Assembly: GCF_000003815.2 (NCBI RefSeq)
Contig: NC_049982.1
Span: forward strand, 7,177,440 to 7,241,439
DNA from: Branchiostoma floridae
Lineage: Eukaryota; Chordata; Leptocardii; Amphioxiformes; Branchiostomatidae
DNA: 64,000 nucleotides
Reading direction: 5' to 3'
The notes under the pieces were generated by a model. The model was not told the origin of the DNA and did no database searches. It saw only the letters and a program-made list of their open reading frames with translations. Numbering within the stretch: the stretch's first letter is position 1; each line of letters starts with the position of its first letter. The translations under genes and the position numbers were made by a program. Positions 1,837-56,000 of the stretch are shown here, in pieces.

Positions 1837-1890
1837 GGCTGATCCACCGAGCAGCCAACTGCGTGGAGTTTGTGACACCAGGACTGACAA

Positions 1891-3053: not shown

Positions 3054-3061
3054 GTCACACG

Positions 3062-3785
3062 TAGTGGTGCGTACCTAAAGCCCGGACTTGGAATTGGACC
3101 TAAAAATGTTTAGGTCCAAGTCCAAAGAAACCTAAATGTCCGGAACCAAGCCCGGACTTGCAGAAATCTGTCATTTATATTCCTTTTTTTTTGGTCTAAA
3201 CCATCTAAAAAACTTTCCATAGACAGTGAGATTTACACTTGAGAAAGCCAAAAAACATTTTGTGTTTACACTGGCTGTATATAATTTGCATATATTTTGA
3301 ACATTGCATTTCAATGCTAACATGAAATTTTATAATAAAGTTCATTGCAAATTCTTGCCCATGGTCTCATTGCAGGTAATATAAAAGATTCAAACAGTGT
3401 AAAAACAATATCATAAGTGTCTACTCTAGTCTAAAGGTAGTAGAAACTAACTCTAGATTCTGGGTTATTGGGTTCGACTCCTTAAGCTTTTTCGAAGACA
3501 GTGGAAGACGAAAGATCCTACCTTTTCTATTATGTGTGGGTTTTGTGATGTTAGAAGGAGAACTGTTTTCTTTTTGTCAGTTAATGTGGGGAAGTTTGGG
3601 TGGAATTTGATGGCCTCTTTGAACATGCACCATCCCCCTCCCCCCCCCCCCTCCAAAAAAAAATTCTAGTTCACATAATATGCAATGACGGGTTCAGGTC
3701 CGGACTTAAAGTCCGGACCTGAACCTGAACTGCTGGACTTGAATCCGGACCTGAACCTGAAAATGAGTTTAGGTACGCACCACTA
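3062..3785. mobile_element. non-autonomous hAT-like DNA transposon, 724 bp
   Basis: The ends are perfect inverted repeats: TAGTGGTGCGTACCTAAA at the left and its exact reverse complement at the right. They are flanked by a perfect 8-bp direct repeat, GTCACACG (3054-3061 and 3786-3793), which is the target-site duplication size of the hAT superfamily. Inside, both ends carry repeated AGGTCCGGACTT / GTCCGGACCT palindromic words. There is no transposase frame, only AT-rich filler and a poly-C run near 3635. It is a MITE-type passenger copy. Family assignment rests on TSD length and TIR shape only. Confidence 0.88.
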
Positions 3786-15417: not shown

Positions 15418-22920
<7,503 letters not shown>

Positions 22921-31101: not shown

Positions 31102-31744
31102 ATGGCGCTGCGACTGCGACTTGTCGCGGTCTGTCTGCTCCTGTTTCTCGGTGATACGGGAGTCGCTGCCGGCTTCAACGTTACAGACATCGGCGGCACA
31201 CTCACGGACAATCTGACGCTGAGTCTGTCGGAAAGCCCTTACAATGTCGTACGGGACCTTGAGGTACCAGCTAACACCATTCTCACCGTCGAACCGGGCG
31301 TCCGCCTTTGGTTCAACGCGACTGGAATTACAGTGAGGGGGACGCTGATCGCTAATGGCACCGCGGACGACAAGATTGTCCTGCGGGGTCATCCCGACCT
31401 GACGGCCGACTTCAACCAGACCAGGGCTCGGTCATATGCCAACGTCAGACTGAATCCGTTGCGGAATCGACAAAATGAAGGTAGACTGGAGATTCTTCAC
31501 AACGGACAGTGGGGTACGGTCTGTGACTGGACCGAGTCGGGGACGTGGTCGGACACAGAGTCGACTGTGGCCTGCAGGATGCTCGGCTACCCTGACGGAG
31601 GACGCTACTCCAGCAGCTACAGGTACTACAGCAGGCCCAGCGCGTGGCTCTACAACGTCAGGTGCGCGGGAACGGAGGCATCACTTGAAGATTGTCAGTA
31701 CCCGGAGGTGGGCAACGTCAACACAGGAAGACCAGCTTACTGTG
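31102..31744 (+). CDS. giant gene exon 1: signal peptide, module A beta unit, most of SRCR-A
   Basis: Leader, then NVTDIGGTLTDNLTLSL, the SPYNVVRDLEVPANT beta unit and an SRCR domain (GRLEILHNGQWGTVCDW ... VACRMLGYPDGG ... LYNVRCAGTEASLEDC). The SRCR is completed by the first codons of exon 2. The donor is TGTG|GTGCGT, phase 1. A truncated copy is at 33795-34155. Confidence 0.92.
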
Positions 31745-34700
31745 GTGCGTTTGGCCCTGTTTTTTTTCTGTTGAATACTGAGAAAAGGATTTGTTTGGAA
31801 ACCTGCAGCTGCTTACTGATATGATAGTCGCTTTGAAATCAGTTATGAACCGGTTAACAACCCGCAAACTTTAAAAATTTGAGGATTCTGCATGTGTTAA
31901 GAAGCAATGACCTTCAGTCATTGTTAACTACTATATCCAATGAAACTTGTGTTGCTTTTCTTTTGGGACAAATTACATCTTGCCAGATTATCGGCATCTT
32001 TGTGATTGTCGTTTTAAAAGTCAGAGTATGTTAAAGTTAAAGTTTAGCACTGTTGTTTGAAGTAATGTGCATTCCCTGCCATGACACAGCGCGGGCGCAT
32101 ACATATAGCTTCTTTTGTTAATCCTACCCTAATGTTGCGCAAATGCTTTTACTTTTGCGTTTCTTCGGATTTTCTCGCCCAAAACAACGCTTGAGTGGTT
32201 TAAAGTATGAACAGCATGTGTTGAACAAGCATTCTCTTCAATCTGAGTTAGAAATAAATTGCCCACTTCATTGTACGTAAATACCGGACCTGTGACGTTG
32301 TGTGTGTGATATTGGGTGTGACGGAAGCTGGCGGAGTATGGGAGAAGGTTTTTCATACCTTTGCCATTTGCCAATTATCTTGTCTGACAATCAGTCGACC
32401 GAGTTAGATTGTAGCAGGGTATTCATGTCTGGATATCTTTATATTCTTACGACGTCTACAAAAGAACAAGCCACCCGCGGCAGCGACTCGGACATACGAT
32501 ATTTCCTGTTGGAACTAATAAGATTCGGTCTAACTTAATAAAATTAATGTAAAAGTAGGCGCCTTAATCACGAGATTATGAACGCTTGACTTGGTATATC
32601 GACTGATACAGCAGGGCTAGGCACTACTTTGCGCATGTCCACTGCAACGTAATCGCTTTTGCACACGGCTGCTGAATGGTTTCCAAACCTGTGGTATGTT
32701 CTCGAGACGATCTCACGGTGTTTACTGAACCCACCGAGCCATGGGTACATTTTGACCCACGGATCAGTCTGCCTGGGGGTAGCTTATTTATAGGCAGTCT
32801 GAAGAGCGAGTTCTTCTGCCCGCAGCTGTCAGCCTGTCGGGAATTTCACTGATAAATTACAAGCCCAATCAATTCAACGTTCTTTTGTGGTACATGTGTG
32901 TTATTTGGGGTTTTGGGACAGCAAGTTGATTGCCTGTGCTTTGCCTCTGTCAAGGCTCTAGGCCATTTTTTTTGCTGTTCACGTTTCCTTGTGTCGTTTT
33001 CTTGTGCCGTCTGGCACCTGGCGGATGACTGCATTGACGTCTACTTAGTAAAATTAGTACGCTAGAGGCGAGGTAAACACATTGAAAAAAAGTTACACTA
33101 TAAAAATTCGTTCTTTTGTGGTACATGTGTGTTACTGGCACAATCAAAAGTTGTTTCTAAAAGTAATGCAGTAATGTGGAAAGGAAAAGAACCCCAGGCT
33201 GGTGACTTTAGTGACTTTAAAGCCGGGACTACACGATGTCAACGACTGGCGATGACCTTGTTGATAGCCTGAAAGGTCGCTGAATCTCAAAACCGCCATA
33301 GAATAGACCATTTTTCCCTATCACATTTTACGGGGCTTGCAAACATCAGGAGATCTCTGAAATCACGCAGTGATCGAAAGGCCACCGCTGGCATACCGCT
33401 GTCACATGTAGCGAAAATCGATCAGACGACGAGTCTGCGAGCTCTAAATGACATTTTCGACATTAAGACGTCCGGTGTTCTCTCGATCATCTTGCGATTT
33501 TTAGGGATCGCCGGCGATTTTCAGGGGTCGTACAATGGTCGCGGTGCAGCGAAACATGTTCTTAACATAAGCAGCGACAGGTCGCCGGTGATCTTTGAGT
33601 TCGCATAGTTCGTTACCGAGTCGCCTGCAGGTCGTCCGTACCTCGCCTAGGTATCGGTCGACATTCGGTTGATAGTAGGACGTCAATCCAACGATTGAAG
33701 ACCGATTTCACCTCCAAAAATCAGACGATGCTCGCTAAAACTGAAACGGTGCCGCAGGAGTATCGCACAAAACTCTTGCGGCCTTCCTCCACATTTTGTC
33801 TGTTTGCTCCTATTTCTCCGTGATACGGGAGTTGCTGCCGGCTTCAACGTTACAGATATCGGCAGCACACTCACGGGCAATCTGACTGTCGGAAAGCCCT
33901 TACAATGCCGTACGGTACCTCGAGGTACCAGCTAATTCCATTCTCACCGTCGAACCGGGCGTCGGACTGTGATTCAACGCGACTGGAATCACAGTGCGGG
34001 GGACGCTGATCGCTACTGGCACCGGAGATGACAAGATTGTCCTGCGGGGCCATCCCGACGTGACGGCCGACTTCAACCAGACCAGGGCTTGGTCATATCC
34101 CAATGTCAGGCTGAATCCGTTGCGGAATCAACAAAATGAAGGTAGACTGGATATTTTTTTGGAAAAGTGGACAACATCATGAAAAGCCAAAAGGCGACTA
34201 TACGACTTAAGAGGAAGGTTTTTTAACCAATACATCATCCCAGTGATGACCTATGGAAGTGAGACATGGGCACTAAACACTACTCAAATGGTGATGCTTA
34301 GAGTTGCTCCGAGGAAAATGGAAAAAAGCAATGCTAGGTCACTCCGTGACAGAAAAAGAAACTCCTGGATCCGACTTCAGACAGAAGTTACAGACATCAT
34401 CACAGCAATAAACACAGCTAAACACCGCTGGGCAGGACACGTAGCGAGGCTACAGGACAACAGATGGACGCTACGAGTCACGGAGTGGACTCCCAGAGAA
34501 TGGAGGAGTCGCAGAGGGACGCCATGCACCAGGTGGAGAGACAACCTGCAGAAACACCTAGGTCCCACCTGGCCACAGACTGCAAGATGCAGAAGAGTCT
34601 GGAATAGTACGAGCGAGGGGTTCCTCAGAGAGAGTGACAACGCCCTGCCATGATGATGATGATGAGTGAACCTTATCGACAATTGTACATGATAGAAAAC

Positions 34701-35040
34701 ATATCGAACTACGAAATATTATAGATAAGCGTATTTATGTCACATTATCATATAGCCAGGCCCCGCGGAGCAATCAGAAGGCCCCGTTCCACGTTGGTTA
34801 TGACGCAGTAACATATAGATTCCGGCCAGGCCGGTGTGTTCGCTCCTTCTGATTGGTCGAAATGAAGTAAAAAATTTGATTGTGGATGTAGGAGCCTTAA
34901 GTTGGGCATTATATCGGTAATGATAATAGCAATTCGAAAATATCGGTCTGTGTACCAGATATAGATTGAAGTGTGTCCCAGTATATCAACGCGTCGTCTC
35001 CCCCTGTCTGTGTGTTTGTCTCTCTTTGTCTCTCTGTCTC

Positions 35041-35092
<52 letters not shown>

Positions 35093-38000
35093 TGCGATAT
35101 TGCCCTGACATGTTGGGTGGCTGGTGTTTCTCAGTATTGTAATGCCGCCGGTAAACAGTTAGATATAGACACAAATGAGACATGCATCAATACTTTCACT
35201 TAATGTCGGCTAATGGTGGAATAAATTAGCAACAGCACGTAGGGGCGATCTAGAATTAGCCACGCACTTTCAACTCTGAGGTATCAATAGTTTTCCCACT
35301 TTTACATCTCCCCGGATTTCGATACTAAACCCGTATCATTTGTGTACGTGACATTGTGGGACGCAAAAGTATGCGTTTATATAACTTAGCAAGTTTTATT
35401 TATGTCATTAATTCTGTCTGACAATCATTTTTGCTATGACTGCAGCCATAAAATATTTCCTGGTGAAACTGTAATAGGTCAAGCTTCACAAAAGGAAAAA
35501 AAAATCTCTGCCTTAATCTCAAGATTATATTCCCCCGGCTAGGTATAAGGTGAATGACCCACCAAAAGCTAGACATCACTTTGGATAGGTTCATCGCAAA
35601 GTATATGGTTATACACACGACAACCGAATGAATCGAATTGAATTGAATTGTGCACGGCTTTAGGACTAGGACTTGATAAAACGTGTGGGATCTGCTATAT
35701 CATGGTGCGATATCACAGTTTTTACAAAAATACCAAATTATGAGTACATTTTGAACTGCGTCACAGACCAGACTGACTGTGAGTAATTTGTTTTTGCAGA
35801 TGACTGCCGGCCAATTAAACTGATAAATTACCGGCTCAGTGAAGTCAACACCCAATTTTCTTTTGTGTTACACACAAAGGTAACAGTCTGTACCAGTCTG
35901 ATACTGGCAACATCAATACGGTCACATTCGATGTGTTTGGGGTGACCTGCGATTACTGGCCGATCTCCAAAATCCTGCAGTAGTTGAGAAGACAGCTGTC
36001 CTGTTGCTGACGTAAACCCACGGTTACACATGTGATCATGGCCCCGACCAATAGCAAACCGTGGTTGACGGAAGATCGGGAGCAGTCTGGCCAGTTTTAA
36101 GTCATGCCCATCTTTTAGCGCTACCGGCATGCATGTCCCAAACATGTCCTAACCATGTCACAACCATTTCCTAACATGTACCGAGCCCCGAATGTTTTAT
36201 AACTACGCTCAACCATCTATACCCCTAGTCGCAGGCTGCCGAGTCCTTCGAATTCCTCGCTGATTTCTAATCGATAGCCAACACTCTCACGATTGAACTC
36301 AGAAGTCAGATATTATCAAAAGAAGTACTATTTTCTTTTATAACCCAAATGATTTCATTCGGATGATTTACGTTGTAAACATCATCGAGAGAACAAAATG
36401 GCGATCACATTCAGCTTCAATGCGACTTTTAGGGTTCTTCAATTTTGGGGGGCTGATGAGTGGCGGTTGGGTGAAGGTCTAGGTTCGAGTTTCTCTTTTC
36501 CTTCCGCGAGAGAAAGTATAGTCAAACCTATCTATAGCTAATATATCTGCGCGATTCAACCTCTGCTTGGAGAGTATATAATTTCGGCCTCTCGTGTTCG
36601 GGGTCTCTCTGGTACCTATGGGTCTCTTTTGAGTAATTAAACTCATTTGTTAGAAATTGATGATTGAGATTCACAGATTGGGTGTTCTAGTGATAAAGAC
36701 ATAAACAAATTAACTGAAAATTTGTTTTTCCCAGTAAGGAGAAAGCCCATAGTCGATGGTCTTTTTAGCGAATGCCCACAAACGCCCACTCTGGAGAAGT
36801 CCGCGCTGCACGAATCTCATTTTTTTTTGCTTGGAATATGTCCACGTTGTGCTCCCATGTATTAATCCTGAGTTTCAAGTCAACCCATCGTTCCGAAGTG
36901 ACATAAATCAAAGTTGACGATTTTCGATGGTCTTTTTAGCGAACGCCCAGCAAAATGTCTTTTTAGCGAATGCCCACCATATCCACAAAAATATCGGCCG
37001 TCGCGCAACGGCACCTAAACCTACCGCCACAAACATGTTCAAGATGGTGTCCCATTAATGTGTACGGAGTTTCCGTGCTCTACAAGCATTTTAAGTCCCT
37101 GTTTTCGGTCAAAATGTATGGCGCCGATACTGCCAACATTAACTATTACAATTCAAAATGGCGGGCACTAGTCACGTGACCTCCTTACGGGACTGTTCTA
37201 TAAGTATCGCGGGAGGGGCTGTTGTAGCATAGCTTATTATACAACCATTTTAGAGTGAATTCTGAACAAGATTTTCAATTCATAGTGCTATCATCTGACT
37301 GATATTTACATTGTGGTCCTTTTTCCTGTGCTATTATTACCCGGGTTTGAGGGACTTAGTGCAAATATGGATATTGATTCACCTCAGTACCCAATTAATG
37401 TACAAAAGGCTCAGACACATTAGTATTATAAACCTGACTAGGGGCAGGTAACCAATACTAGAAAAACATAGCTATTTATTATTAACTGTATTTCCTTTGA
37501 TTACAGACCAGGTAAGACACCGTACAGGTGAGTAAGGTGCGTTTCCGTTTATAACTGACCAGGTAAGACACCGTACAGGTGAGTAACGTGTATTTCCTTT
37601 GATTACAGACCAGGTAAGACACCGTAAAGGTGAGTAAGGTGTGTTTCCGTTTATAACTGACCAGGTAAGACACCGTACAGGTGAGTAACGTGTATTTCCT
37701 TTGATTACAGACCAGGTAAGACACCGTAAAGGTGAGTAAGGTGCGTTTCCGTTTATAACTGACCAGGTAAGACACCGTACAGGTGAGTAACGTGTATTTC
37801 CTTTGATTACAGACCAGGTAAGACACCGTACAGGTGAGTAACGTGTAAATATAATGTAAATTATAATGTAAATAGTATTGTTAATAATAAATAGCTATGT
37901 TTTTCTAGTATTGGTTACTTGCCCCTAGTCAGGTTTATAATACTAATGTGTCTGAGCCTTTTGTACATGAATTGGGTACTGAGGTGAATCAATATCCATA

Positions 38001-41000
38001 TTTGCACTAAGTTCCTCAAACCCGGGTAATAATAGCACAGGAAAAAGGACCACAATGTAAATATCAGTCAGATGATAGCACTATGATCTATGAATTGAAA
38101 ATCTTGTTCAGAATTCACTCTAAAATGGTTGTATAATAAGTTATGCTACAACAGCCCCTCCCGCGATACTTATAGAACAGTCCCGTAAGGAGGTCACGTG
38201 ACTAGTGCCCGCCATTTTGAATTGTAATAGTTAATGTTGGCAGTATCGGCGCCATACATTTTGACCAAAAACAGGGACTTAAAATGCTTGTAGAGCACGG
38301 AAACTCCGTACACATTAATGGGACACCATCTTGAACATGTTTGTGGCGGTAGGTTTAGGTGCCGTTGCGCGACGGCCGATATTTTTGTGGATATAGTGGG
38401 CATTCGCTAAAAAGACATTTTGCTGGGCGTTCGCTAAAAAGACCATCGAAAATCGTCAACTTTGATTTATGTCACTTCGGAACGATGGATTGACTTGAAA
38501 CTCAGGATTAATACATGGGAGCACAACGTGGACATATTCCAAGCAAAAAAAAATGAGATTCGTGCAGCGCGGACTTCTCCAGAGTGGGCGTTTGTGGGCA
38601 TTCGCTAAAAAGACCCTAGGTTCGGCCTCTCGTGACCGCCGTCTCTCGGATACTTATGGGGTCTCTTCTGAATAATTAAGCTCATTTGTTAAAAACTGAT
38701 GATTGAAAATCACAGAATGAGTGCTGTAGTGATAGAAAACATTAAAGAATTGATTGAAAATTTATTTTCGCAGTTATGAGAAAGCCCCCACACGTACAAT
38801 GGTACAGTTGGCCCCTCGTGCCCGGCCTGTGGTGACCCATATGGCTGGCACGGGGAGCGCTCCTTACCCCACTCTCTTTCTCACCAAGTAACATTGTCCC
38901 GATCGTCTCAAAATTCAACTGACCCTGTTAAATCTACACAAAACCATTAATATTACCATGCGCAATGGTGGTAAATTCGCTGACTTCTATGGCCGCTATA
39001 GTCAGGTTTGACGGTACATTTTCTCTTTCACAGTTTGCCAAGTAAGCCTGGAATGTAGGTCTTTCTTCAAAACTGGTGAATGGGTAGAATTTGTAGCACT
39101 TCTGGCTGCACGGTTTTGCATGGTTTGCAGTTTGTCTACCTGTGTTCGTTTTGTCACGGAAGAGAGAATAGAGGCACAATAATCTAGATGTGACAGAACA
39201 AGTAATTCTATGTTCTACCACAGGGAAAGAAGTGTCAGCGGAAAACAAGGTGGTTCAGCTTACCGGGGCTTAAATGGACGAATTCAGAGCCCGTCAGACT
39301 CATCTCTATTTAGTCATCCTGGATTAAAGGATGTATTGCACAGATAGGAACAAGATTATTGAAACCCCATTGTCAGGCCAATAATTGCAAAGGCATAGTT
39401 TTTCAACCATATATTATCATAACTACTTGTATGTTGTCGATATCCTTTAAGTGTAAAATGAAGGGGCCTTCATTGTAATATGGACCTATTATAGCAAACC
39501 AATGATATAACTTAATGATATGATGAGTAAGCCGAGAAAAAAATATTTAGCAAACTGTTCTTCTGAGGAGGGTTAAACGCGCCAACGTTTAGGGTCTATC
39601 AGTGTTCATGGCAGGAATGCATCTGATGCGTGTAGATTGAGATAGCAGAACACAGTTTTCGGCCTATGGGGATTTTTATAGTTAAGGGCCACATGGTGAC
39701 TGGCTTAGACGCATTAAAAAATATAGTAGAGTGCACTTTTGGAATACCATAAACGGATATGTTTGAGTTGAAGGTGCGGGACACAAAATATTAAAAAACA
39801 AAAAAAATCCTGTCGACGTATCGTCTTCTCACGCCCTCTTTGAAATGCCCCTCTGCGAAGGTCACAGAACTGCAGCCGGCTTACACTAGAAAGACAGTTG
39901 CGTAATGGGGCGTATTTGTACACAAAATTGAATACTTTCACAATCCAAATTATGCATTCTCAAAGTCGACACCTTCTGTGACTACGTAGCACAGTTTATA
40001 TCTGGATGCCTCTCAAATAAGGCTGTTTGCCGCTCCTTCAACAGTTTTATATTTACTACTTTATCTACCCCCGGGATTCACCCATTAATACTGTGTTCTG
40101 CTACCTTGAATGGCAGACTGTTCAAAAGTGAAAGTGAATCAGACTCGAATGAATGAAATGAGCCGTGACCTTTGATCTTATCTCCAGGCACGGATGATGA
40201 CGTCGGGCTCGTCTGCGACGGCACGAGGGACATGGACACGGACGGAAGAGACCTGTGGAACGGTGTCCAGTTTGATGACGCCGCCTACACAACCGTCACC
40301 GAGGGTCGCGTCAGATCGTCCCGGTCACCATCTGTCCTAAACCACGTCACCATTGACGGAGCCGGGGCGGCCTCATGGCCTGCGTGGGTGAGCACGGCTG
40401 TGGCCATACGCGGAACGCCTCCTACCATGACTAATCTTATTATCATCAACTCATTCAGGTCTGGTATCAAACTGCTGCACATGAAGTCCGACCTTCGCAT
40501 GTCGAACATAAACCTCACCGGAAACGGCGCCATCAGCGTGGAGACGAACCCACTCCACAATGTCTATCTGCACAAGGTGAACATAGAGGACAGCAGACGG
40601 GAAAGTCTGCTGTTCAAGGAGAGGAACCCCAATGAGACCCCACGTGACTTCTGCACCTTAGACACCACTGGCAGCGGCGACCAGATTAGATTACGTTTCC
40701 CGTCGTACTTCAGGGGTATTCCCGTCGATACTCCACCGCAGATTGCGTTAAGGTAAAACGATTCTGTTTGTATTAGAGACATTTTTAAAATACAGTTACA
40801 CATGGAATATTATCTGCTTTACGTTTATACTGATTCATAGTCGATTAATTTCTATGCCAACCGACTTGATAAGTAACAGAGTTTTTCGTGTTGTGGAAAA
40901 AGACATCAAAATGGACGTAGGTTTCAATTCATTACACTAATAACATTTGAAAGCAAGTTTGTGCTTGAATTATTAACAATACTTACATATATACAACGAA

Positions 41001-44000
41001 CGAGACACAAGCGGCACCTGTTCCTTAGTATTATCGAACTATCCCATCCCAGGTCATAACGACAGACCCTGGGAAGATGATCACAGTACAGTACATCACC
41101 ATGTCATCTGACCCACGGAACGGACACTCGCCCATGATGTTTCAAGTTAGAGATGGGGCAACTGGGGATGCACCTTTCCTGGACGACGGTAGCAGAGTCA
41201 CGGCGGAACGCAAGTCATTGACCACCGGACAGTACAGCATCTGGCTCCGGCTCCGGTCTATGTACTACAGCGAGGATAGGTTCACCATTGTTTTGACCAG
41301 TCATGATACTCCAGGTAAGTTCTTGCATATGTTTCTATTAATTTATTCGAAATGTTTACCTTGTACTACCTCTATGGTAATTTGATATAAAAATTGAGTG
41401 GGTGGTTCGCGATAGCGCCATATCCTGTAGTCACATACAATAACGTTCGCGAAAGTTTTTAGTTCACGGTGAAAAGACACCCGTGAAAACTGGGAACGTA
41501 AAACCATTGCGAACATTTCTGCATCTAAAGTTCATATTGTTCATGCTCTGTATTTTTTACGTGGTAGTCGTTTTAATTCTACGTAGCTACACTCTTCTTG
41601 TTTGCCATATTCGTCATCCTCTATTCATTAAAAACGCCGGTTGTATAACGTCAAACACAAAACCACACCAACAGGTCCAGCCATTCTGATCGAGGACTGC
41701 AAAGTCGCCAACGGCATTAGTCTGTCCGGGTACAAACGCGCGGTAAAGATCGACGGTACCGAGGTGTCGTCATCGGAGGGGACAGGTCTGTTTTCTGAAG
41801 GCAATGGAGACCTTAGCGTGACACAGACTACCTTCACGGGAAACTCTGATGGAATTGTTGTGGTTAGAAGGAACGCCTTTGACCAGGCAAACATACAAAT
41901 AAAAAATGTCACCTTTCATGAGACCAGAAAAGTAGGCCTGCGTCTGGAGAACCCCATGGGGCTGCGCTTATCGGTAGAGGACAGTCAGTTTATTCAAAAT
42001 AAGGGCAAGTCCATCGTCGTAACCGACTTCGAGGCAATTGAATCTACAGTCATCAACAGCACATTTTCGAATAATTCAGATGTTTGTATAGTTTTCTCAA
42101 AACAAAGCTCGGTAGATCACCCTTTCGACGTTGCCATAACAGGAAACAGCTTCTTTCAGAACAGCGGACCGCGTATTGTTCATCTCGACATACCGGAGAA
42201 CAGCGACCCATCAGTGACGTCTGTTGTAGAGTTCGTCGATAATATATTAGAGGCTAACACAGTTTTGAATCCGTTTCAAAGTGCGTATGGATGTTCCAGT
42301 AAATGTCTCTACGCAGTTCTTGTCGTACACGAGGTGGTCACAACCCTGCAAGATAATATCTTCACGAACCCAGCCGCTCGATATCAACTATCGACTACAG
42401 GCTCGACGTCACCGCAACCAATAAATGCAACGCACAACTACTGGGGAACTACAGAGGGACCGGATATCGTAAACATTCTCTTTGGCAAGTCGCACCGATA
42501 CACTTTGAGAGAGATATTGTTCGCACCTTATTTTCTATCTCCAACAAAGGCAAATATAAGTGCACCATATTTCCCTGCATGGCCTGATTTCTACAGAAAT
42601 GACAGTATCGGCGGCGTGGTACAAGGAGACCTCTACCTGTCCGCTGCAGGCAGTCCGTACTATGTGTCCGGTGACATCATCATCCCCTCAAACAGCTCCC
42701 TCTACATCGAAGCTGGAACTACACTTGAGTTCGCGCAAGACGTAGGTTTGTTCGTTCAAGGGAGACTAGTGGCAAATGGCAGCGATGAAGAAAGAGTTCA
42801 GTTTATGTCGGTTAAGAAAGATAACGGCAGTACGCCATCAGACAGAAAGGACTTTATCAGGCTCACGGGAGGTAATCACACGTGGGAGGGGTATGTACAA
42901 GTCTTTGTGAATGAATCTTGGCAGGCCGTTTGCAGAGATAATGACTGGCTTGTGACAGATTCCGAAAGGATCTGCCATCATCTTGGATACAAGGGCATAG
43001 AAACAGACGTCCATGGCAGGCGACCATTTTCTGAATCCACATGGCAGCGCAATTTGACATGCGGTGACCTGTTTGAAGCAGGACAAACGCGATGCCTGAA
43101 TCCCGTCAACACCACAGAATGTGCATCGGTGTTGTATGTAGTTTGTGACGAGTCCCCTTGGCTCGGTTTACACTTCACACTCACAGCAGCGCCCAGCGTC
43201 CTGCGGAACATCGACGTGTCCGGGAGCAGAACCGGGCTGCGCGTTGATTTCCACAGCCACAGGATGTCCAACATCCGCGTGCGTGACGTACAGGAAAACG
43301 GTATCATTCTTCGACAACGCAATGCCCTACGGAAGCCCTCAATGTGTGACGACTGCAGTCTTGAAAACATTGGAGGTCACGGTATACAGGTCTATTCCAC
43401 GCCTTCATTAATCAGGAAGACCTCCATTCAGAACGTCGTAGGAAACGGTATAGACATTAGGGGCATCACACCAGAAGACGTCATGAGGGCAACGTCACTG
43501 ACACCGCTTTCTGTCAGACACTCTATTTGCTCCGGTAACAGAGCCTTGGATGCGGGAGAACGTGTTTTGGTAGAGCTGAATAGCGTCGATAGCTGCGTGG
43601 AGTTTTTTTCCACAGTGCCAGGCCACGTCATTGCGGTACAGGCCATGTTTCAGACTAGCGATACAATGCTGTCGCTGAGCATTCACGATGGTGGTTCAGC
43701 TGAATCAGGCCAGGAGTGGACCATTGATGACGAGGAAGCAGACGTATTTGTTTCAACCAGTCAGACCATTGCCCTTGTATATGAACCATCTGGATCGGAG
43801 AACAAGACATATCTTCTGGTAGAGGCATTGCAAAATAGCGATTGGCAACATCTGGTTAGTGAGGACATGAAACGGGACATGATGATTGAACACACAACCA
43901 TATCTAACGCTAACATTGGGATTTTCTTTGATCAATCAGAAGAAAATAATGGTAACCTACGCCACTTCCTAATGACGGATTCGTCAGCAATGGGCTGTAA

Positions 44001-47000
44001 TCATGGTATCAAAGTGGTGAATATTTCTGCAAACGTTATCGTAAAACAAAGCACTTTGAAAGGAAACAAGGAAACTGGCATCACAGTGGAAGATGTAACA
44101 CGAAACAAAGCATTAATCAGTTTGAATGCATCGAAGATCTCTTGGAATGGGGGAATAGGGCTGGAAATGGCGTTTTCAGATACTACATATGAAAAACAAA
44201 TTGTGGTTTCTGGATGTCGTTTCGAACGGAATGCAATGGTGGGGATGAGCATTGCTCTTGAGGAAATCCAGGGATCTGGTGACCACCTAGTCGGCCTGTC
44301 ATTCAACACATTCCTTAGTGCGGGGGATCCTGCCATGAGGCTCACAGGATCCACTGCTAAATGGGACATAAAGGAAAATACTTTTGACAACAATTCAATA
44401 GTGATGGAAATAACTGGAGAGATGACGACGTGGTACTTTGAACAAAACTCCTTCATTCGCAACCGTGTACGAAGGTATCTAATAAGCACGGTCAATGTAT
44501 CGTCTGCAGTCGTCATCCTAGAGGGAAATGCCTTTACTAACAATGAAGTAGAAAACGGTGGTCTGTTGGATGTAACGGGGTTTAATAACAACTGCACAAT
44601 TTCATCAAACGTTTTTCAGAACAACTCGGAATGGTATGTTATCGATATCGCAGTTTCTGGACATGGAGTCGATGATACAATCTTACCCTTCGTCACAGTG
44701 TCTGATAACCGTCTAGAAGGGAACGTATTCAACCAGTCACATGAGTTTTCCGGCTGTGCTATCTTTGTTGGACCGATGCAGAACGTCCCAACATTCCAGT
44801 TCAACCGCCTGGATAACCCTCAATTCAACTGGGAATTGTGCATGGACGGAAGTGACGCGTTCTCTGACAGCATCTTCGAGGCACCTCTAAACTGGTGGGG
44901 AAGTGATGACGCAGCTACAATCCGGAGCAGGATTTTCGACTTTGACGATTGGAACGATCACCCTCTTGTCGACTTCAGTCCTTTCCTGATATCTGCAGAG
45001 GGGAATATGTCACGCCATTGGGCCAGGATCTCAGAAATAGGAGGACGGATCTTTGGCAATATGACACTTACGATCGATGGCAGTCCGTATCTTGTATCCG
45101 AGGATATCACAGTTCTCCCAAATGCTACATTAAACATCCACCCTGGCGTCGAACTGCAATTTGCTCCAAACGTAGGGATATTGGTAGAAGGTGCATTGAA
45201 AGCTATAGGGGAGGAAGATAACATGATAATGATGACATCTGGTTCTCCGAGCTTGATTCCAGGTATAAGATCGGACAGGTTTTACGGAATACGCCTTGTC
45301 GGGGGTGGTAATCGATTCGAGGGAAGAGTGGAGATATTTGTCAACGGACAATGGGGAACTGTCTGTGACGATGGATGGGGGCACTCTGATGCCGTTGTGG
45401 CTTGCAGACAGCTTGAATTTGGTCCACCGTTAGATTACTGGCATCGCTTTGGTGGTGGAACAGGTCCCATATGGTTGGATGACGTCAACTGCAATGGTGA
45501 TGAGTTTGAGCTGCTAGCATGTAGCTCTAGAGGCATAGGATCCCATAACTGTGGCCACCATGAAGATATCGGCATCAAATGTGGCCCTGGATATGACCGG
45601 CAAAGAACAGCTTTATTTACAAGAGATGATCGTTGGGGCAACATTCGTGTCCGCACAACAGACACAGAGTCGTCTAACGATGTACCAAGCTCCGTACTAC
45701 AGTACGTCACAATTTCAGGAGTAGGCATGTTACATGGGATTGAGGTTCCGGCAATACAAACTATTGGTAATGTCATAACGCTGCAGCACGTAAATGTGTA
45801 CAATTGCAGCTCACACGGTATCGAACTGGTGTCACCATCAAAATCAGCAGATTACAACACTGTCAAAGTTAACATGACGTCATCGAACACAGCCATGAAC
45901 TTGGTGGAATACAACAGAGATGTAGTATTGGAGAACATAGAGGCGACTGGAGGAGAGTATGGTATCCAGTTCAAGTCCCTTTGGGATTACAGCAAAACAG
46001 CCCCGTACCTAGAGACGGGTTCAGCTGCCTTTGTTGAAGTTTGTGACAAAACATCCACGGTATCTGTGGCCTCTAAAATTATCATTTCACACCGCAACTC
46101 GTACCTGTACAGATTTGCAAGAACAATTCACTGCAGTGTAATTATCAAAGCTCCGAGAAACCATAGAATCCATTTGAATCTGGACATATCGTCAGCTGGA
46201 GGAGGAAACCGACTGTACCTGTACGACGGGTCGTCTGGAAATACAATATCATCCTATAGCTATGCACGAACAGACGAGCAAACATCTTCCTCAGACTCTG
46301 TTCGGATGGTGATGACCGGACATATTCATTTCATCTGCCAGACTACAGTAGTTTCAAGTAACAGAATAGGTAAGGCCAAAATTTCTGCTGTCTATGTTGT
46401 ACCTTAAACAAATATTGAGCAAGTTAATAGAATAATTCTTCAATTCAGTGACATTGAAAACACGTAAAACACGTACCTCCAAATTTTCGGTGTCTGCTCG
46501 GTACAACAAGATGTATGTACCCAATATTTATGCATGAGGTGGTTTATGATAGTCTTTTAGTGTTTCAGCCAATGGTGTTGACAATGTCAAAAATTCTAAA
46601 ATCTAAAACTTTATTCTTGTTTTCTATTTTTGCTCCTCTGCAGCTCGAGTGGATCATATCGTAGCAAACAGTGTGATTGAAGGAAACAGCGAGGGCGGGC
46701 TTGTTTACACGGAACAGGGCACAGCAAGCACGCGTCTCCGCATCGTGAACACGGTCGTTAGGGACAACAGTGTTACGACATCATCCAGTTCTTCCGCCTC
46801 AATTTCGATTCATGCGAGAGATGTTTTAATTGAAATGTTCAACAACACTGTGCAAAACAACAACGGTGGGACCAAAATACAACTGGATGACCCAGAGAAC
46901 AGCAACATGGAGCCAGAAGATACAAAGAAGCATACGATTACAAACAACACATTTAGTGACAATTATGGCTCAGAAGCACTATATTTCGAACCTCCGCAGT

Positions 47001-50000
47001 CCCCCCAAAAGGATCATGTTATTCTTAAAGAGAACGTTTTTGAAAATAACCAAGTATCTGTCGCTGGAAGAGGCATAGTCACCCTTAAGGGAGTCCATAT
47101 AGACCTCAAAGAAAATACGTTCGGAGGAAACAAAGGTGAATATGCCTTTGAGTCTGTAGATAGAGATAATGAAGATGCAAAAAGAAACATCAGTATCAGA
47201 GCAAACGTTTTTGAAGAAAACGATGTAGACCGAGTCGTGGACATATCCGGGACCGGTACAAGAGTGATCGCGGTGGAAAACCAGTTCCAAAGTCATCAAG
47301 CTCCTCTTCTTCGCGTCACAGTGTCAGAGGGACATGTCCGAATAGTAGAAAACAACTTTCGCGGAAATAGAGACGGGCTTCTAGCATTGGAACACAGTAG
47401 TAAATCATTGGTTGAAATTACGGGAAACGAGTTTCGTAACAACACTCGAGCTTCAAATCCTCTTATCGACCTCCGTAGCGACAATACTTACGTAGTCACG
47501 AAGAATCTACTGTCAAATAACAGCGCTCCTATCATGATTCGAGTCTCCACGACATTTCTGCATGATAACAGCTCAACCACTACAGATGTGTCGATGATGG
47601 GAAACATTCTGAAGGACAACAAATACGACAACAGTACCAGTGGTGGCATTGTGGGAGGTTCCTGTGCGATTCTATTCGCAGCTGACCAAAATGTTATAAA
47701 CTTTAACAAAAATTCACTACAAAACTACGAGTTCCCATTGGAACTCTGCATGGACACTTCCATTGCTTCCCTCGAAAACGTTCAGGATGCGACCGAGAAT
47801 TGGTGGGGAAGTCAAAATGAAGACAACATTCGGCTGAGAATCTTCGACTTTGATGACAGAAATGACCGCAGGATCGTTAACTTCAGTCCATATCGAGCAA
47901 GTGAATACGGAAACGACAGTATGTACGCGGACATCAGCAGAAATGCGGGTAGTATCTTACATGGACGGATACACAGATCTCTTACACTAGAGTCATCAAA
48001 GAGCCCATACATAGCCACAGGTGACGTCACTATCCTGCCAAACGTAACTCTCAGCATAGAGCCAGGTGTTGAGATCCGTGTCCAGCAGGATGTTGGGATC
48101 CTTGTCTTGGGGAGTCTCCTGGCGAAGGGTACTCCGGAGGACAAGATAAGATTTGTACCGGTCGATGAAGCGGTCCATTCTCCAGTAGTAACTACATGGA
48201 CAAGGAGCACCAGGATCCGGCTTGTAGGTGGCGGTCAACCTTGGCAAGGGCGTTTGGAAATGTTTATCCGCGGTCAGTGGGGAACTGTCTGCGGCCGCAG
48301 GGGTTGGACCTGGCAGAATAGCCAGGTAGTCTGTAGAGAATTAGGTTATGGTCCACCAACTGGATCCCACACATATCAGTATGGGCAAGGCGAAGGACCT
48401 ATATGGCTCGATGGGGTCCAATGCCAGGGTGATGAAAGAAGACTTCTTCAATGTAACTCACAAGAAATAGGCGTTACCAGCTGCTATGCTCACCACTGGG
48501 ACATTGGAATCACCTGTCAGGCTGCTGACCCAGAAGAAGAAAGCAACGAGATGTCAGTGAATTCGTGGGGAAACATCCGAATTTCAGTTAGCAAGTCTGG
48601 CGTGCCAATAGATCAACAAATCACACTAGAAAACGTAGATATTTTACATGCTGGACGGCTACACGGAATTGACGTTCCAAGCTTGCAAACCATTGGCGTC
48701 GACTCAGAAATAAGTGACGTATCCATCGCGAATTGCGTGTCGGACGCGATTGAGGTTGTGTCTGCAAACCGTGTTAAGATAGATCGGTTGTTTGTTGATG
48801 GCTGTAATTCTGCTGTCTCCCTTGCTGAAGTGTCAGGGGACACGCATATAGGCTCATCAACCGTGACCTCGAACGAGGTCGGAATCAGCATGACAGAGGC
48901 CTTAACTTACAGAGAGGTGTACATACCTAAAGGACATTTTAGTTCCTTTGGATTCATCGACATCTGTGATCACCAAAACGTCATCGAAGTGCAGACAAGT
49001 TTGAAACTTTATCACAACTCCTATTACGTCACGCGCGTCTCATGCTTCAAAGTAGTCAAAACAAATCCAGAATTTCTCCTTCGCGCAAAGGTATCGAGTC
49101 AAGACGTGCACCAAACAGTGACAATATATGACGGGGAGGTGCCATCAAGGGATAAGCGCCTTGTTTACCTGACGCCTTCTACAGCCACCGAGTCTACCAG
49201 AAAGAAGGAAGTTTTCTCCGCATCCAACAAATTGTTGATCGTGGTAAATGACCCAATAAGGTTTCTTATAGAATTCAACGTCATTAGGAAGTCAGGTCAG
49301 TGTCATTTTCTTCAGATTAGTAACATTTATTTCTAACTGTGCCACTGTATTTCTAATTCTTCTGTCCTCTACATCACATTCAAACTACTACTAATATGAA
49401 ATTGACGCGTGCTCCTTTGTGTAGCACCAGTTAATGCATCGTATTGTTCAGATTGCACTGGCGATACGTTTCGTAGGATTTAGAATAAACCAAAAAGAAT
49501 TCAATGATGGTAAATGGTTAAAGAATTTGAAAAAAATTGACATTTAAAAAAAAAATTGAAATTCCCATCCAAACGCAAATTTATGCGTTATGGAAGCTTT
49601 ATACACTTATTCTTTCACTTAGTAAGTACAACTTCGTCTCAAGACATCTTAATTCAATGCATCATTTAAGAAAGTCTGACATTATGTCACAACTAACGTC
49701 GACCTAGAACTGCTTGTTATACTTCTATACTCTATATCTAAAGGCTCGGCGGTCTATTACTGTTGCTTTTTTCAGAGAGCTGCAGTTTCGAGGATCTGTC
49801 ATGTCCTTGGACGAATTCCCGAGACACGGCATGCCGGGAAGAGGATATAGAACAGGAGTGGAGACTGCGGACCCGCGGGGTCGATCATCAGTGGTTTTCT
49901 GGACCACCGGCGGGCAAAACATATGGCATGTTAAATCAAACCAATCATTGTACAACTAACGCAGCGACCTGGCTTAACCTCTTTTTCTAGCTCTGCCAAA

Positions 50001-53000
50001 GGTTCTGGTCTCTTTTGTTGAATACAGTACACATAAGACCAGAGCTATATTCAACACATCTAAGTGTCTATCTGCAAGTATTTTGGAATTATATCACCTT
50101 GAAATAGACAAAGGTAACATAGACATGTATATTAAATGTTTTGTTTTTTTCAGATTCTGGTTATTATTCACTTGGATGCTGGAGGGATACATCGAATCGC
50201 GCTATCCCGTCGCTGGAAGGGACAGACTCTCGTCTCGATGGTCGTTACTACTGGAGACAAAACCCCATACAGAAATGTCATGGTGTCGCCGTGAGTCGAG
50301 GCTTTCAAGTGTTTGCTGTCCAAAATGGCGGCGAGTGCTATTCAGGGCCTGACGCAGAGTCGACGTACATGATGTACGGCCAGTCAACGGGATGTAGGTC
50401 AGACGGTGAAGGCGGCTACCGGGCCAACCAAGTCTACAAGATTATCAACGGTAACCACTTGATCTTATAGGAGCCCTTGAACTTCGTCGTCAAGCATACT
50501 TCGTAATGTGAACTTGACTGCGATGCGAATACATGTAAACAGCAAGAACCAAAGCATGATGCGATGATTTACCAGATTATGATGGAAATTGTAATCTTTC
50601 TTTCAGGTCAGTATCTGTACGCCGGGTCACACTACGTCGGCCATCCACAATACCAGATTCATGCGACCTTGGAGAGTACTGCCGACCCCGTCTCTAGAAT
50701 CTGTGGACTGTCGTTCTACTATTACCTCGGCTCAGACAGCTCTAACCACCCGGTCTCCTTATCTGTAACCGCGGGAACTGAGTACAACAAATCTGAAGTT
50801 TTCTCAGTCACAGCTGTCAGATCCAGCGACTGGGAACTGGCAAACATTGCCCTCGACGAAACGCAAAATGTCTCCTCGGTTGCTATAATAGCAAGGTATT
50901 GGAAGGGCCAAAGAACAAGTGTATCGTTTGATGAACTAAGAACATTCTACTGCAGACAGAGTAAGTTGTGTCTCCCTTTTCTACTTCACAATCCATCCAA
51001 TTAGGTGACTCTTTTGGACTAAACAATGATTATTATGACCATTTATATATCTGTTTAGGAAACTTAATCTGATTTTGTTTGCAGGCGTCCGATCTACAGT
51101 AATCACGGAAACTGTCGTTGAAAACAACCAAGAGAGCGGAATTGTGTACAAAGGTGAAGGAGGCGCTGTAAAAGTAGAAAATTGTAAAATTGTTGGTAAC
51201 GGCGTGGTGACTGCCGAAGCAGAATCCACGCATGCTGTCTCCCTGACACTGATGAAGACTTCCCTCGTTTTCAAGAACAATTACGTAGCACACAACCAAA
51301 ACGGAGGCGTGAATGTGAACATATTAGCGGGAACCAACTGGCTCACCAAGTCACGGACTGTCACACATTCACTTTTGAACAACTTCATTTCCTACAATAA
51401 CCAATCAGAGGCACTGGTCATTCAGGACAACAGCGATGATGGCTATCTGTCAGTGCAACTTAGGGGCAACACAATTAGTCACAATTGTCCTGAAGACACT
51501 AAAAACGTTCTCAACATTGAAGATGCAGGATGCCAAGTTTATCGCAACACCCTATACAACAACACCGGTCTTCACGCAGTGAAATGGACAAGGGCTGTAA
51601 GTAACGAGACGAGTGTGTTCCGCGGTAACCGTGTGCTGTACAACTTGGGGCAGTCACCGTCGTCAAGGATATCGGTCTTGACAAGCTCGGGTATGGACTA
51701 TCACAGCAACAGGTTTGTGAATCCGGCCAACGCCTTTGAAATGGGCAGCACGGACAGAACACAAACATCGTCAGTGATAAACGCCACCATGAACTGGTGG
51801 GGTTCTGCTGACGAGGAAGTGATCAGAAGGCGGATTCGCGACGATGACGTGCAGCCAGAACTGATTGACATCGAATTCATTCCTTTCCTGACAAAACTTC
51901 CCCTGGTTACGTCTGTAGGTTCGTATGTGCCAAATAATCTCTGTATTGTAAATGTTAGAATTTTTTTAACAGATTTGGCATTCATGCCTAAGTCACATCT
52001 ATTGCAAAGTCACATCTATTACATGTATGCACTGTGCAATTGCCCACTGAAATGATGTCAAATATCATTTTACATTATGTCATATGATACTGTCTGTAAC
52101 AGGAGGGTGCCCAAGTGACTGGTATGCGTCTACGTTCGGCTGTTACATGTTTGGGGTAGGATCCCTGAACTGGGAGGAAGCCCAACAAGTTTGCACTGTG
52201 AGTTGGTCTTTCATACCAATGCTCATATTGCAAAATAAGTGATAATTTCTGATTTGTTATATATAAATTTAGTTGTTGTGTGAGTAGAAAAACATGATTC
52301 GTTGCGATGTGTTGATTTTGAATGTTCCACATCAGTCCCATGAGGCACAGGTGGCGACCTTTGCAAGCCTGGAGGAAGTCTCGGATGTCGTCACCAACCT
52401 GATCTTCGAGGCGGGTGATCGGGGTGAGGAACAGAAAATCTGGATCGGCAGAGGGGGACTGCCCGCAGTTGTCACGGGGATTCCCGGTCCAGATGAAGAG
52501 TTGCTGACAGTGGTCATTGATAATCCGCAGCAGGTATGGAACCATCATACAGTAAGCATTTATATGTTTGTTATCATATACAAGATTGGCTGGGAAATAC
52601 GAATGCCCACTGGAACAAAAACGGTTTTGGCGAAGGAGCTGAGGAAATAAAAATGCGGTCCGTCGCCACACCATATATAGTGATTAGGGCGACGCTTACC
52701 TCCGCTTTTGTAGACTTGGATCAGAGAGGGCTAGCCCACTACTAGGTTCGTTTGGTTAACTGCCATACAACTTTATGTGGATAGATCTATAGATATCTTT
52801 GAGATATGAGTCAGCCTGGGACCAAACCCGCAACCGACCGAATGCGAGGTGAGCAGTCTACCTTTACTATGGGATATGACCAAATGACTGATCATATTTT
52901 GTGTTTAATTTTGCAACAGGTATCTTCTGATATCGGTAGCCAGATCAGCCCAGGAGTTATCGTGATTTCTGACAAGTCCCTGGTGACGATTGAAACTTCT

Positions 53001-56000
53001 CCTGCTGAGGCACAAAGGAGACGGAATCCCTTCATTTGCAAGAAGGATCTGGGTAAGAGCCTGTTTCGTGAATTATCATAATGTTTCAGACGTTTTTATG
53101 CCTTCAGATATAAAGGTGCAGTCACACGAGCGTGTATATCAACTACGAACGTATGAGTTGCATATCTACAGTTTTGGTTATCGGTTCGATAACCACGTTG
53201 CACATTAAAAGTCTAAGTAAAATGCAACTTCTTCTCGGCAAATTTTACATAAATCGAAAGAATATGAGAACCCGCCCTAACAGACAAGTCCGTATGTGTT
53301 GCCTATTGACATTCTTGTTGACCTATGTTACCTCAAACCATAACCATGTTCTTCGGATACAGTTGTCCTGTGTCCGTTTGCGTGCTTCCATAGGGGCCAG
53401 TGTGTCGGCAGAACATGCATCTGTAACAGAGGCTGGGAAGGAGAAGCGTGTGCCGAATTCCACTGCAGAGATGTCAACAACTGTGGAGATTTTGGGACTT
53501 GTGTTGGACCAAACAACTGCAGGTGTAAGTTCGGATGGCAGGTACGTACTGTACATCCATGTCTTAATTGATTAACACCATTGAAGAACGCACTTTACAA
53601 TGATGGTCTAATCACTGCGAGTGAATGTTGCATTTATTAACATTATTGAATCATCGTCCATTTTCATCAAATTTCAGGGCCGCGCATGCTCTGTGAGCTA
53701 CTGCAACCGCTTCGACACGTGCAGGGCATGCGCGAGAGAGACCGGATGTGGATGGTGTGATTCGTCTCAGCAGTGCCTGTCGGGTACCGGAAGTGGTCCA
53801 GATACGGACTCCTGCTCCACCTGGTTTTACTACGGCTGTCTGACCGCTGGGGCCGCAGAGACATGTTCGGACCAGATCCAGGTGAATCAGACTGCGTGTA
53901 GATTATAAATTTTTTTGAAAATTGTGAGTTATGCGGCTTAAGTTTGCAAGTTTACAATTTCGCTAACTAGTACACGTGTTCGGATCAGATTCAGGCGAAT
54001 GAGATGGCAATATGTTGTTAATGAAACTTAGAAAAACTTTGAGTCATGTCGTTTGACTAATGTGTACGTAACGTATGTTGTTGATGGTATACAGAAAATT
54101 GACTGTGAAGGGCGGCAGTGCAATGACGACTTGCCTTCGTCAAACATAGCAACGTGCAGCAAATGTCTGGACTCTCAATACTGCTACTACCAACCGGTAA
54201 GCCCTACAACGTCCTCATTGCTGTTTTATAGATGTAATTCTATATGTGATTATCTCTGTGAAGTGCATGTCAGATAAACATAAACTAAACATAAGTAAAC
54301 TACATAACCGCCAATGTATTAGTAAGAACTTGCATAAATTGCACGTTTCTTTCGCATTTACATTGACGCATTTATGTTGTTAACTGATATGGTTTTGTTT
54401 TAGGACTCTTTAGGCTGCCACGGCTGGAACGAGACGAGATGCCCCCACGGAGAAGTCAGCCCAGACTACAGCGACCCATCGAGGATAACCCGGGTCCAGT
54501 GGAGGGACAACGTCCGTCCGATCGACCCTAACGTCACCACCTTGTTCCTCTGTCAGGTCACTCTGGCAGAGGAGTACGGTGAAGAAGCAGTGCTCTTCGT
54601 GGCTCCCACTCCGACTGACTTCGCTGTTGGTAATGTTGTTGTCAGCGGTCAGGCGGGTGGGATTATGCATCGAGTTCAGGACATTGGCCTCGCAGGTGAC
54701 AGACATATACTGATATAAATCATTAGAACCACGGATGATAACATCATTGTTATAGGGTGGTGTATTGGTCATAAGCAAAATTAGGCTTCATGCTTGAACT
54801 AAGTTTCAAACTATTAACTAGGGTTAACGACCCCTACTTTCGCCAAATCACTTTAAACTTTACAACTGGTGTATTGATTGTGTTTGTCGTTGATTATGTA
54901 AATTATGGCTGATCATCTCGACCTAAAAACAGACGTGTACAATCTATGTTAAGAAAGAAGACTTCTGAAAATGTCTAGTGTCTGTAAATGATCATCATTT
55001 GCATAATTGATGTTCAAAGATATTCACCTGTACATAACTTCCAAATGCTACAAGTAATTTACCACAATGGAATTATAGCATTTCCTCATGAATTTTATGC
55101 AAATAAGTTCTTTATTTGCATAATGTTTATCTATCAATATTCTTCTCCTTCTTAGTTACAAATGTCACATGTTGCAATAGTCCTATAATGGAACAGGCGT
55201 TCTCACGTTGGTCACACAAACACACACACACACATACAAACGCTACCCAAAATATAACCTTGGTGAGGGTAATTATATTCCAGAGTTTTAAGCATTGTAT
55301 TCATACCCATGTGTTGGTATTCTTAATACTGAAAACTTGACGTTCTGTTTTACTATACAGGTGCCTTCGCCTTTGTTGTTGGCATTCCTGCGGCTCTGGA
55401 GGAGACGGTTGCGTACAGCGACTTCCGGCAAAACGTAGAGCTGCGGTCCATCGACGACAGCGCGACTGTAGAGGACATACCTGATGATGACCTACTGAAC
55501 AGCGTTCTGAATGGCAGTCTGGCTGTCAACGCCACTATCAAAACTATACCAGAGGGTATGTTTCTTTAAGCCTTCGTCACAATCATGAAAACACAATGGT
55601 GAAAACACACTGTAACAACTGTGTTAAAGGCTTCAGCATTCGATGGCAAGGATTTCTTGATAGGTTTCAAGCGCTCCAGTATTCACCATTTTGGTTTTCT
55701 ACAGTTACAGTCTTGACATTACTGTTACAGGCTTGAACTCCCGTGACTATACCACATGGTTTGTAAAAGCCTTTCTTGATTTTTTGAATACTTTGATGCC
55801 TGTAACAAGACAAGATCATTGAATGTTGTTTTAGGAGTTACCGTTTACAAATGTGTCGGAGATGTCTACAACATCGATGACGAGGACGAGTGGAAGTCGG
55901 AGTTCCTTGTGATGAACTCCAGTCAGTACTCCGAGCTGCAGCTGAGCGCTGGAGACTTTGTTGCGAGTACGGTGACGTCAGGGTGGATAGAAACAGTTGA

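What the first reader, a model, noticed from the sequence alone, without database searches (positions are those of the whole stretch)
31102..51918. Four-module Bark beetle/Anakonda-like protein in a chordate-type genome
Seen: four successive units with the same order, starting SPY...GD...LPN, then SRCR, short beta-helix, CUB-like, long beta-helix and N-W/Y-WG. Known: Drosophila Anakonda/Bark is described as a triple-repeat SRCR/beta-helix/lectin protein organising tricellular junctions. Inference: this is its deuterostome relative with one extra module, so module number evolves and a tricellular-junction role could be older than arthropods.
Basis: partly seen in the sequence, partly recalled or inferred. 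Interest (0 to 1): 0.75.

Follow-up and report, generated by a model that had tools for sequence, protein, structure and literature searches.

The report
Four-module Bark-like giant adhesion protein
This stretch of an animal genome encodes a giant extracellular protein laid out like the insect cell-junction protein Bark/Anakonda, but with four repeat units instead of three and a much longer tail; the start and end of its repeat unit also resemble proteins of bacteria and archaea.

Summary
The four units are real. A hand-set model of 21 phase-compatible exons (31102-58957, + strand) reads 4155 residues without a stop. Four modules of 787, 811, 880 and 1002 residues match each other far above shuffles in six of six pairs. 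Each has an SRCR domain directly behind a beta-helix-type cap. The layout and SRCR spacing resemble published crab Bark.
Two corrections. The opening (SPY) and closing (NxWG) marks are not Bark signatures: all four caps match bacterial or archaeal proteins, and four of six such proteins fetched also carry NxWG. Unit 4 differs from the others: a MAM domain split by a WSC exon sits at a phase-1 intron place shared by units 1, 3 and 4.
No Bark sequence or animal genome collection was available, and structure prediction never ran. Orthology, chordate origin and a tricellular-junction role are therefore untested. I call it Bark-like, a new variant of a known kind.

The parts
31102..31744 (+). Exon 1: ATG, hydrophobic leader (by eye), cap of module 1 (SPY at aa 45), most of SRCR 1
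40188..40752 (+). Exon 2: end of SRCR 1, short helix and start of the CUB-like part of module 1
   Evidence: phase-compatible splice to exon 1; by eye it completes the SRCR end
40880..40916 (+). Exon 3: tentative 37-base micro-exon within the CUB-like part of module 1
   Evidence: needed to keep frame between exons 2 and 4
41053..41314 (+). Exon 4: rest of the CUB-like part of module 1
41675..46369 (+). Exon 5: long helix of module 1, all of module 2, and module 3 up to its CUB-like part
42601..45033 (+). Module 2 (aa 812-1622), wholly inside exon 5; weakest SRCR of the four
46644..49295 (+). Exon 6: long helix of module 3; module 4 cap, SRCR 4, short helix, CUB-like part
49776..49949 (+). Exon 7: first half of a MAM domain in module 4; 3' end chosen by phase, weak donor
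   Evidence: MAM rises from 36.5 to 49.8 bits when joined to exon 9
50154..50450 (+). Exon 8: WSC domain, phase 1-1 exon between the MAM halves
   Evidence: PF01822 E 1.3e-6, 29.0 bits, cut-off 27.8
50607..50960 (+). Exon 9: second half of the MAM domain
   Evidence: PF00629 E 5.6e-9
51085..51918 (+). Exon 10: long helix and closing NWWG of module 4; 3' end chosen by phase
52103..53052 (+). Exons 11-13 (52103-52197, 52351-52533, 52920-53052): C-type-lectin-like domain; only about the first 40 residues find lectin matches
53363..53541 (+). Exon 14: two EGF-like repeats, teneurin-like
   Evidence: PF23106 25.0 bits, cut-off 24.3
53678..53881 (+). Exon 15: PSI-like domain
   Evidence: PF01437 18.8 bits, below the cut-off of 23.1
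54095..58957 (+). Exons 16-21 (54095-54196, 54404-54695, 55361-55555, 55835-56051, 58318-58483, 58772-58957): C-terminal extension of unknown domains
   Evidence: phase-compatible and stop-free; no family hit above cut-off outside the EGF part in draft pieces
59344..64000 (+). Further coding-like exons, some cysteine-rich; the gene probably runs past the window end

Best explanation
A single animal gene for a giant extracellular adhesion protein of Bark/Anakonda type. Four modules, each a right-handed beta-helix with an SRCR domain inserted behind its cap and a CUB-like domain between its short and long helix, form a long, partly stiff rod. A lectin-like, EGF and PSI stem and a further tail follow, presumably membrane-anchored beyond the window. 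Most likely the rods of neighbouring cells bind each other through SRCR and CUB-like faces and hold epithelial cells together at junctions. Shown here: modules, SRCR domains, exon structure, inserts. Inferred: the fold of modules 2 and 3, the CUB-like fold, anchoring, homophilic binding, junction location.
For: Six of six module pairs homologous. SRCR in 4 of 4 modules; Beta_helix above cut-off in modules 1 and 4. SRCR spacing and a lectin-like domain after the array resemble published crab Bark (passages of PMC6716108). [quoted passage not shown] A phase-1 intron at the CUB/helix border is shared by modules 1, 3 and 4, as expected if one genomic unit was multiplied.
Against: Four modules, not three. 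No convincing membrane segment to the window end, whereas crab Bark has one within the 255 residues after its CTLD. At least 4155 residues against 2863 in crab. Module 4 has MAM and WSC inserts. The lectin-like domain has no Pfam hit, and modules 2 and 3 give no Beta_helix hit when scanned apart. No Bark sequence was compared and no fold was predicted.
Confidence: 0.5

Rival explanations
1. A Bark-like pattern-recognition receptor or secreted opsonin: SRCR, CUB-like and lectin-like domains bind microbes, and junction work is not its role in this animal.
For: Crab SpBark is induced by bacteria; its lectin domain binds LPS and it promotes phagocytosis (abstract and passages of PMC6716108). SRCR genes are expanded in amphioxus and sea urchin (passages of PMC10855680).
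Against: Nothing in the window speaks for immune expression. The lectin-like domain finds lectin matches only in its first 40 residues. Junction and immune roles are not exclusive.
Confidence: 0.2
2. A separate lineage that put SRCR domains into beta-helix scaffolds independently of Bark, or a distant paralogue working as an extracellular-matrix protein.
For: Cap and NxWG marks are shared with prokaryotes, so part of the resemblance to Bark is generic. Tail, MAM and WSC differ from crab Bark as published. No convincing membrane segment found.
Against: The whole order cap-SRCR-helix, repeated at similar spacing and followed by a lectin-like domain, would have to arise twice. The three SRCR loci found in bacterial genome bins matched in the SRCR only.
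Confidence: 0.22
3. The array and the lectin/EGF/tail exons belong to two neighbouring genes, or the fourth module is an assembly error.
For: The 3' ends of exons 7 and 10 were chosen by phase; exon 3 is a micro-exon; no transcripts are available.
Against: 21 exons are stop-free and phase-compatible. Module 2, module 3 and the first half of module 4 lie in two long exons. Modules differ too much (28-35% identity) to be an assembly duplicate.
Confidence: 0.08

Closest known systems
Bark beetle / Anakonda (Drosophila), SpBark (mud crab)
   Same: Repeated SRCR plus parallel beta-helix units, a lectin-type domain after the array, similar SRCR spacing (passages of PMC8006247, PMC11698045 and PMC6716108). 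QPD and WND are absent from the crab lectin domain (passage) and, by eye, from this one.
   Different: Four units instead of three; MAM split by WSC in the last unit; EGF, PSI-like and a long tail; no convincing membrane segment within the window; at least 4155 residues against 2863 in crab. Only published coordinates were compared.
Right-handed parallel beta-helix proteins of bacteria and archaea (Salinibacter, Haloferax, Halorussus, Methylomonas, Bernardetia plasmid genes)
   Same: Same opening cap (39-47 bits to a profile of the four caps) and, in 4 of 6, the closing NxWG. Pfam Beta_helix passes its cut-off in 5 of 6; Salinibacter scores 19.0 against 25.9.
   Different: No SRCR in 6 of 6 scanned (the Methylomonas protein was read only in part).
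SRCR superfamily receptors (CD163, DMBT1, neurotrypsin)
   Same: SRCR domain of about 100 residues.
   Different: In the 26 PDB sequences listed, the best stretch lies in the SRCR only.

Membership tests
Bark/Anakonda | Repeated units with SRCR and parallel beta-helix | tested here: met
   SRCR in 4 of 4 units; Beta_helix above cut-off in units 1 and 4, by homology in 2 and 3
Bark/Anakonda | Exactly three units (triple repeat) | tested here: not met
   Four units. I therefore do not file it as a Bark member, only as Bark-like
Bark/Anakonda | C-type lectin domain after the array | tested here: inconclusive
   Residues 3-40 match LOX-1 chains (E 3.6e-6 at best) and residues 1-39 NKG2-D (5e-7), but the top two rows and many others are designed armadillo repeats matching the rest; no Pfam hit
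Bark/Anakonda | Single membrane segment near the C-terminus | tested here: inconclusive
   Eight hydrophobic rows in 53-64 kb (two overlapping), none in the 21-exon model; one borderline (mean 1.93) in a candidate exon; the gene runs out of the window
Bark/Anakonda | Signal peptide | not tested
   A hydrophobic leader is visible after the first ATG; no predictor was run
Bark/Anakonda | Closer in sequence to Bark than to other families | not testable with these tools
   I had no Bark sequence, and no animal protein collection is offered
Bark/Anakonda | Tricellular septate-junction location and homophilic adhesion | not testable with these tools
   Needs experiments
Prokaryote-type right-handed beta-helix scaffold | Cap and NxWG closing motif | tested here: met
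   Cap hits for 4 of 4 modules; NxWG in 4 of 6 fetched prokaryote proteins, shuffles 0-16 per 1000
CUB domain | Match to the CUB profile | tested here: inconclusive
   0 of 4 by Pfam; joint profile leads to CUB-bearing chains at E 0.033-0.57 and one antibody chain at 0.57

The most novel reading that the evidence does not exclude
Bark-type junction proteins are animal re-uses of a prokaryote-type beta-helix surface scaffold, into which SRCR and CUB-like domains were inserted before the unit was multiplied. The number of units then changed between animal lineages, with four units and a much longer tail here, and the tricellular-junction organiser predates the split of protostomes and deuterostomes.
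Probability: 0.15. Interest if true: 0.75.

Novelty: new variant of a known kind. Interest (0 to 1): 0.42.

Why it matters
Invertebrate tricellular occluding junctions are described from fly proteins, and vertebrate ones with others, tricellulin and angulins (passages of PMC6894751). The prokaryote-like cap and closing motif give a concrete, testable origin for the module.

Tried and rejected
Gliotactin partner nearby: the esterase frame at 172-1914 (-) keeps a GQSAG motif, so it looks like an active carboxylesterase rather than gliotactin.

Recent duplication as source of the fourth unit: rejected. Branch lengths are 0.63-1.77 substitutions per site. Modules 3 and 4 pair (SH-aLRT 88.2, ultrafast bootstrap 81), but the two other quartets are not rejected by the AU test (0.108 and 0.231).

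Relatives of the module in viral contigs: three scans answered. In the first no pattern matched; in the others 34 and 32 stretches matched and none was a relative. Genome contigs: 35 stretches, 3 loci, SRCR residues only (frames read). Phages with module 3's long helix: none. Module 1's long helix against plasmids: none.

NCBIfam: weak hits far below cut-off in 2 of 6 proteins. PDB search with module 3's long helix: one row at E 0.21. No tRNA and no Rfam match at gathering scores.

Chordate origin from a repeat: the minisatellite at 37483-37847 carries splice-like CAG|GT units. Amphioxus genes show 'mirage' repeats of exon borders (passages of PMC3087553 and PMC3902484). This one lies mid-intron, so it is a lead only.

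Literature: in the listings I saw no paper on a deuterostome Bark; several of these lists were capped. Byri 2015, Hildebrandt 2015 and one review are not held, so what I say of the fly protein comes from citing passages or recall.

The automatic exon chains contain spurious small exons; the final model was set by hand from splice sites, phase and homology.

They lowered one claim: Beta_helix is above cut-off in two units scanned apart, not in three.

Full report
Gene model. The array begins with an ATG at 31102. Hand-set exons give a stop-free reading frame of 3769 residues in 15 exons up to 53881 and 4155 residues in 21 exons up to 58957. Exon 1 joins exon 2 across an 8.4 kb intron; by eye this restores the end of the first SRCR. 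Exon 3 is a 37-base micro-exon needed for frame and remains tentative. The 3' ends of exons 7 and 10 were picked because they fit the phase. Coding-like exons continue to the end of the window, so the gene is probably incomplete here.

Four modules. Module borders are residues 25-811, 812-1622, 1623-2502 and 2503-3504. Local alignments of all six pairs, with module 4 taken without its insert, score 241 to 735; 100 shuffles per pair never exceeded 84. Identity over aligned residues is 28-35% (171/614 to 210/599). Modules 3 and 4 are closest (BLASTP E 1.9e-69). A maximum-likelihood quartet groups them, but the two alternatives are not rejected by the AU test.

Domains. SRCR scanned unit by unit: E 1.3e-18 in module 1, 1.1e-8 in module 2, 1.3e-28 in module 3 and 2.2e-25 in module 4. 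Beta_helix passes its cut-off in the long helix of modules 1 (49.8 bits) and 4 (27.1 bits). Module 2 and the long helix of module 3 give none when scanned apart, although exon 5 as a whole gives 82.3 bits in four stretches. The CUB-like segments have no CUB hit in 4 of 4. A profile of the four gives 5 PDB rows up to E 10: three enteropeptidase heavy chains (0.033-0.052), cubilin (0.57) and one antibody chain (0.57). The domain after the array matches lectin-like receptors only in about its first 40 residues (LOX-1 3.6e-6; an NKG2-D construct 5e-7). The same search ranks two designed armadillo proteins on top, and lists many more, through the rest of the domain; I take these as repeat artefacts. 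EGF_Teneurin passes its cut-off (25.0 against 24.3 bits); PSI does not (18.8 against 23.1).

Module 4 insert and introns. A phase-1 intron lies at the border between the CUB-like part and the long helix in modules 1, 3 and 4; module 2 has none. In module 4 three exons sit at this place: half a MAM domain, a WSC domain, and the other half of MAM. MAM scores 36.5 bits for its second half and 49.8 bits when the halves are joined. All three exons are phase 1-1, the pattern expected of exon shuffling, with the caveat that exon 7's end was chosen by phase.

The scaffold is not specific to Bark. tblastn of each module's opening against 72,556 plasmid records found prokaryote proteins in 4 of 4 cases: module 2, two records; module 3, two; module 1, one; module 4 cap alone, six at a looser limit of 0.1, three of them at 4e-4 to 5e-4. 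For modules 1-3 longer queries were given and every match lay on the cap. Of the 7 distinct proteins, 4 are annotated as right-handed parallel beta-helix; the others carry other names (carboxypeptidase regulatory-like, choice-of-anchor Q, CARDB). I fetched 6 of the 7, leaving out Halorubrum; the Methylomonas protein was cut by the end of the stretch. A profile of the four caps scores 39-47 bits on the 6; 600 shuffled copies reach at most 5.3. These proteins were chosen by their caps, so that score is partly circular. The closing motif was not used for the choice: 4 of 6 carry N[WYHF]WG (two of them close kin, both Haloferax), against 0-16 per 1000 shuffles of each protein. A profile of the four closing segments gives 28.7 bits on the Salinibacter protein, but only 11.1 and 10.6 on the Haloferax ones, 4.2 on Halorussus and no row for the other two. 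Pfam Beta_helix passes its cut-off in 5 of 6 and SRCR appears in none. I infer that each module is a general beta-helix scaffold with animal domains inserted; whether animals acquired it from prokaryotes is not shown.

Comparison with Bark. Crab SpBark has SRCR domains at 106-210, 976-1082 and 1797-1914, a lectin domain at 2512-2608, a membrane segment, and 2863 residues in all (passages of PMC6716108). Here the SRCRs start at 128, 909, 1720 and 2604 and the lectin-like domain at 3506. The steps are 781, 811, 884 and 902 residues, or 627 for the last without the 275-residue insert; crab has 870, 821 and 715. Layout and spacing agree roughly; unit number, insert and tail differ. No Bark sequence was available, so this is a comparison of published coordinates only. 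The crab paper reports Bark homologues in other invertebrates; I saw no statement about deuterostomes in the passages read.

Function. Fly Anakonda mediates homophilic adhesion and is needed on three adjoining cells (passages of PMC11698045). Crab SpBark acts in phagocytosis. I favour adhesion for this protein, but nothing in the window tests it. Species and chordate status were not determined: the genome search did not complete and no animal collection is offered.

Noticed in passing
window 33798-34158: A second copy of exon 1's first part lies in intron 1, 89.4% identical to 31129-31497 but with an 8-base deletion that breaks the frame; the copy stops where the SRCR begins.
   Followed up: partly
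window 36758-38615: Two inverted arms of about 735 bases, 98.1% identical, flank a minisatellite of 51/102-base units (37483-37847) full of splice-like CAG|GT motifs.
   Followed up: partly
window 6606-9056: Tandem duplication of about 1.2 kb, 92.6% identical.
   Followed up: no
window 172-1914 (-), 11515-12111 (-), 19135-19815 (+), 25280-27237 (+): Neighbours: carboxylesterase frame with GQSAG, a cytochrome P450 exon, a C-type-lectin-like exon just under the Pfam cut-off, short-chain dehydrogenase exons.
   Followed up: partly
window 58772-58957: The C-terminal extension holds a basic RKRR stretch that resembles a furin-type cleavage site (the site pattern is recalled).
   Followed up: no
L005:6744-8993, L005:9111-11336 and L003:4156-7332: Long open frames with several SRCR-like repeats (partly by eye), in bacterial genome bins; those in L005 also have cysteine-rich repeats.
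   Followed up: no
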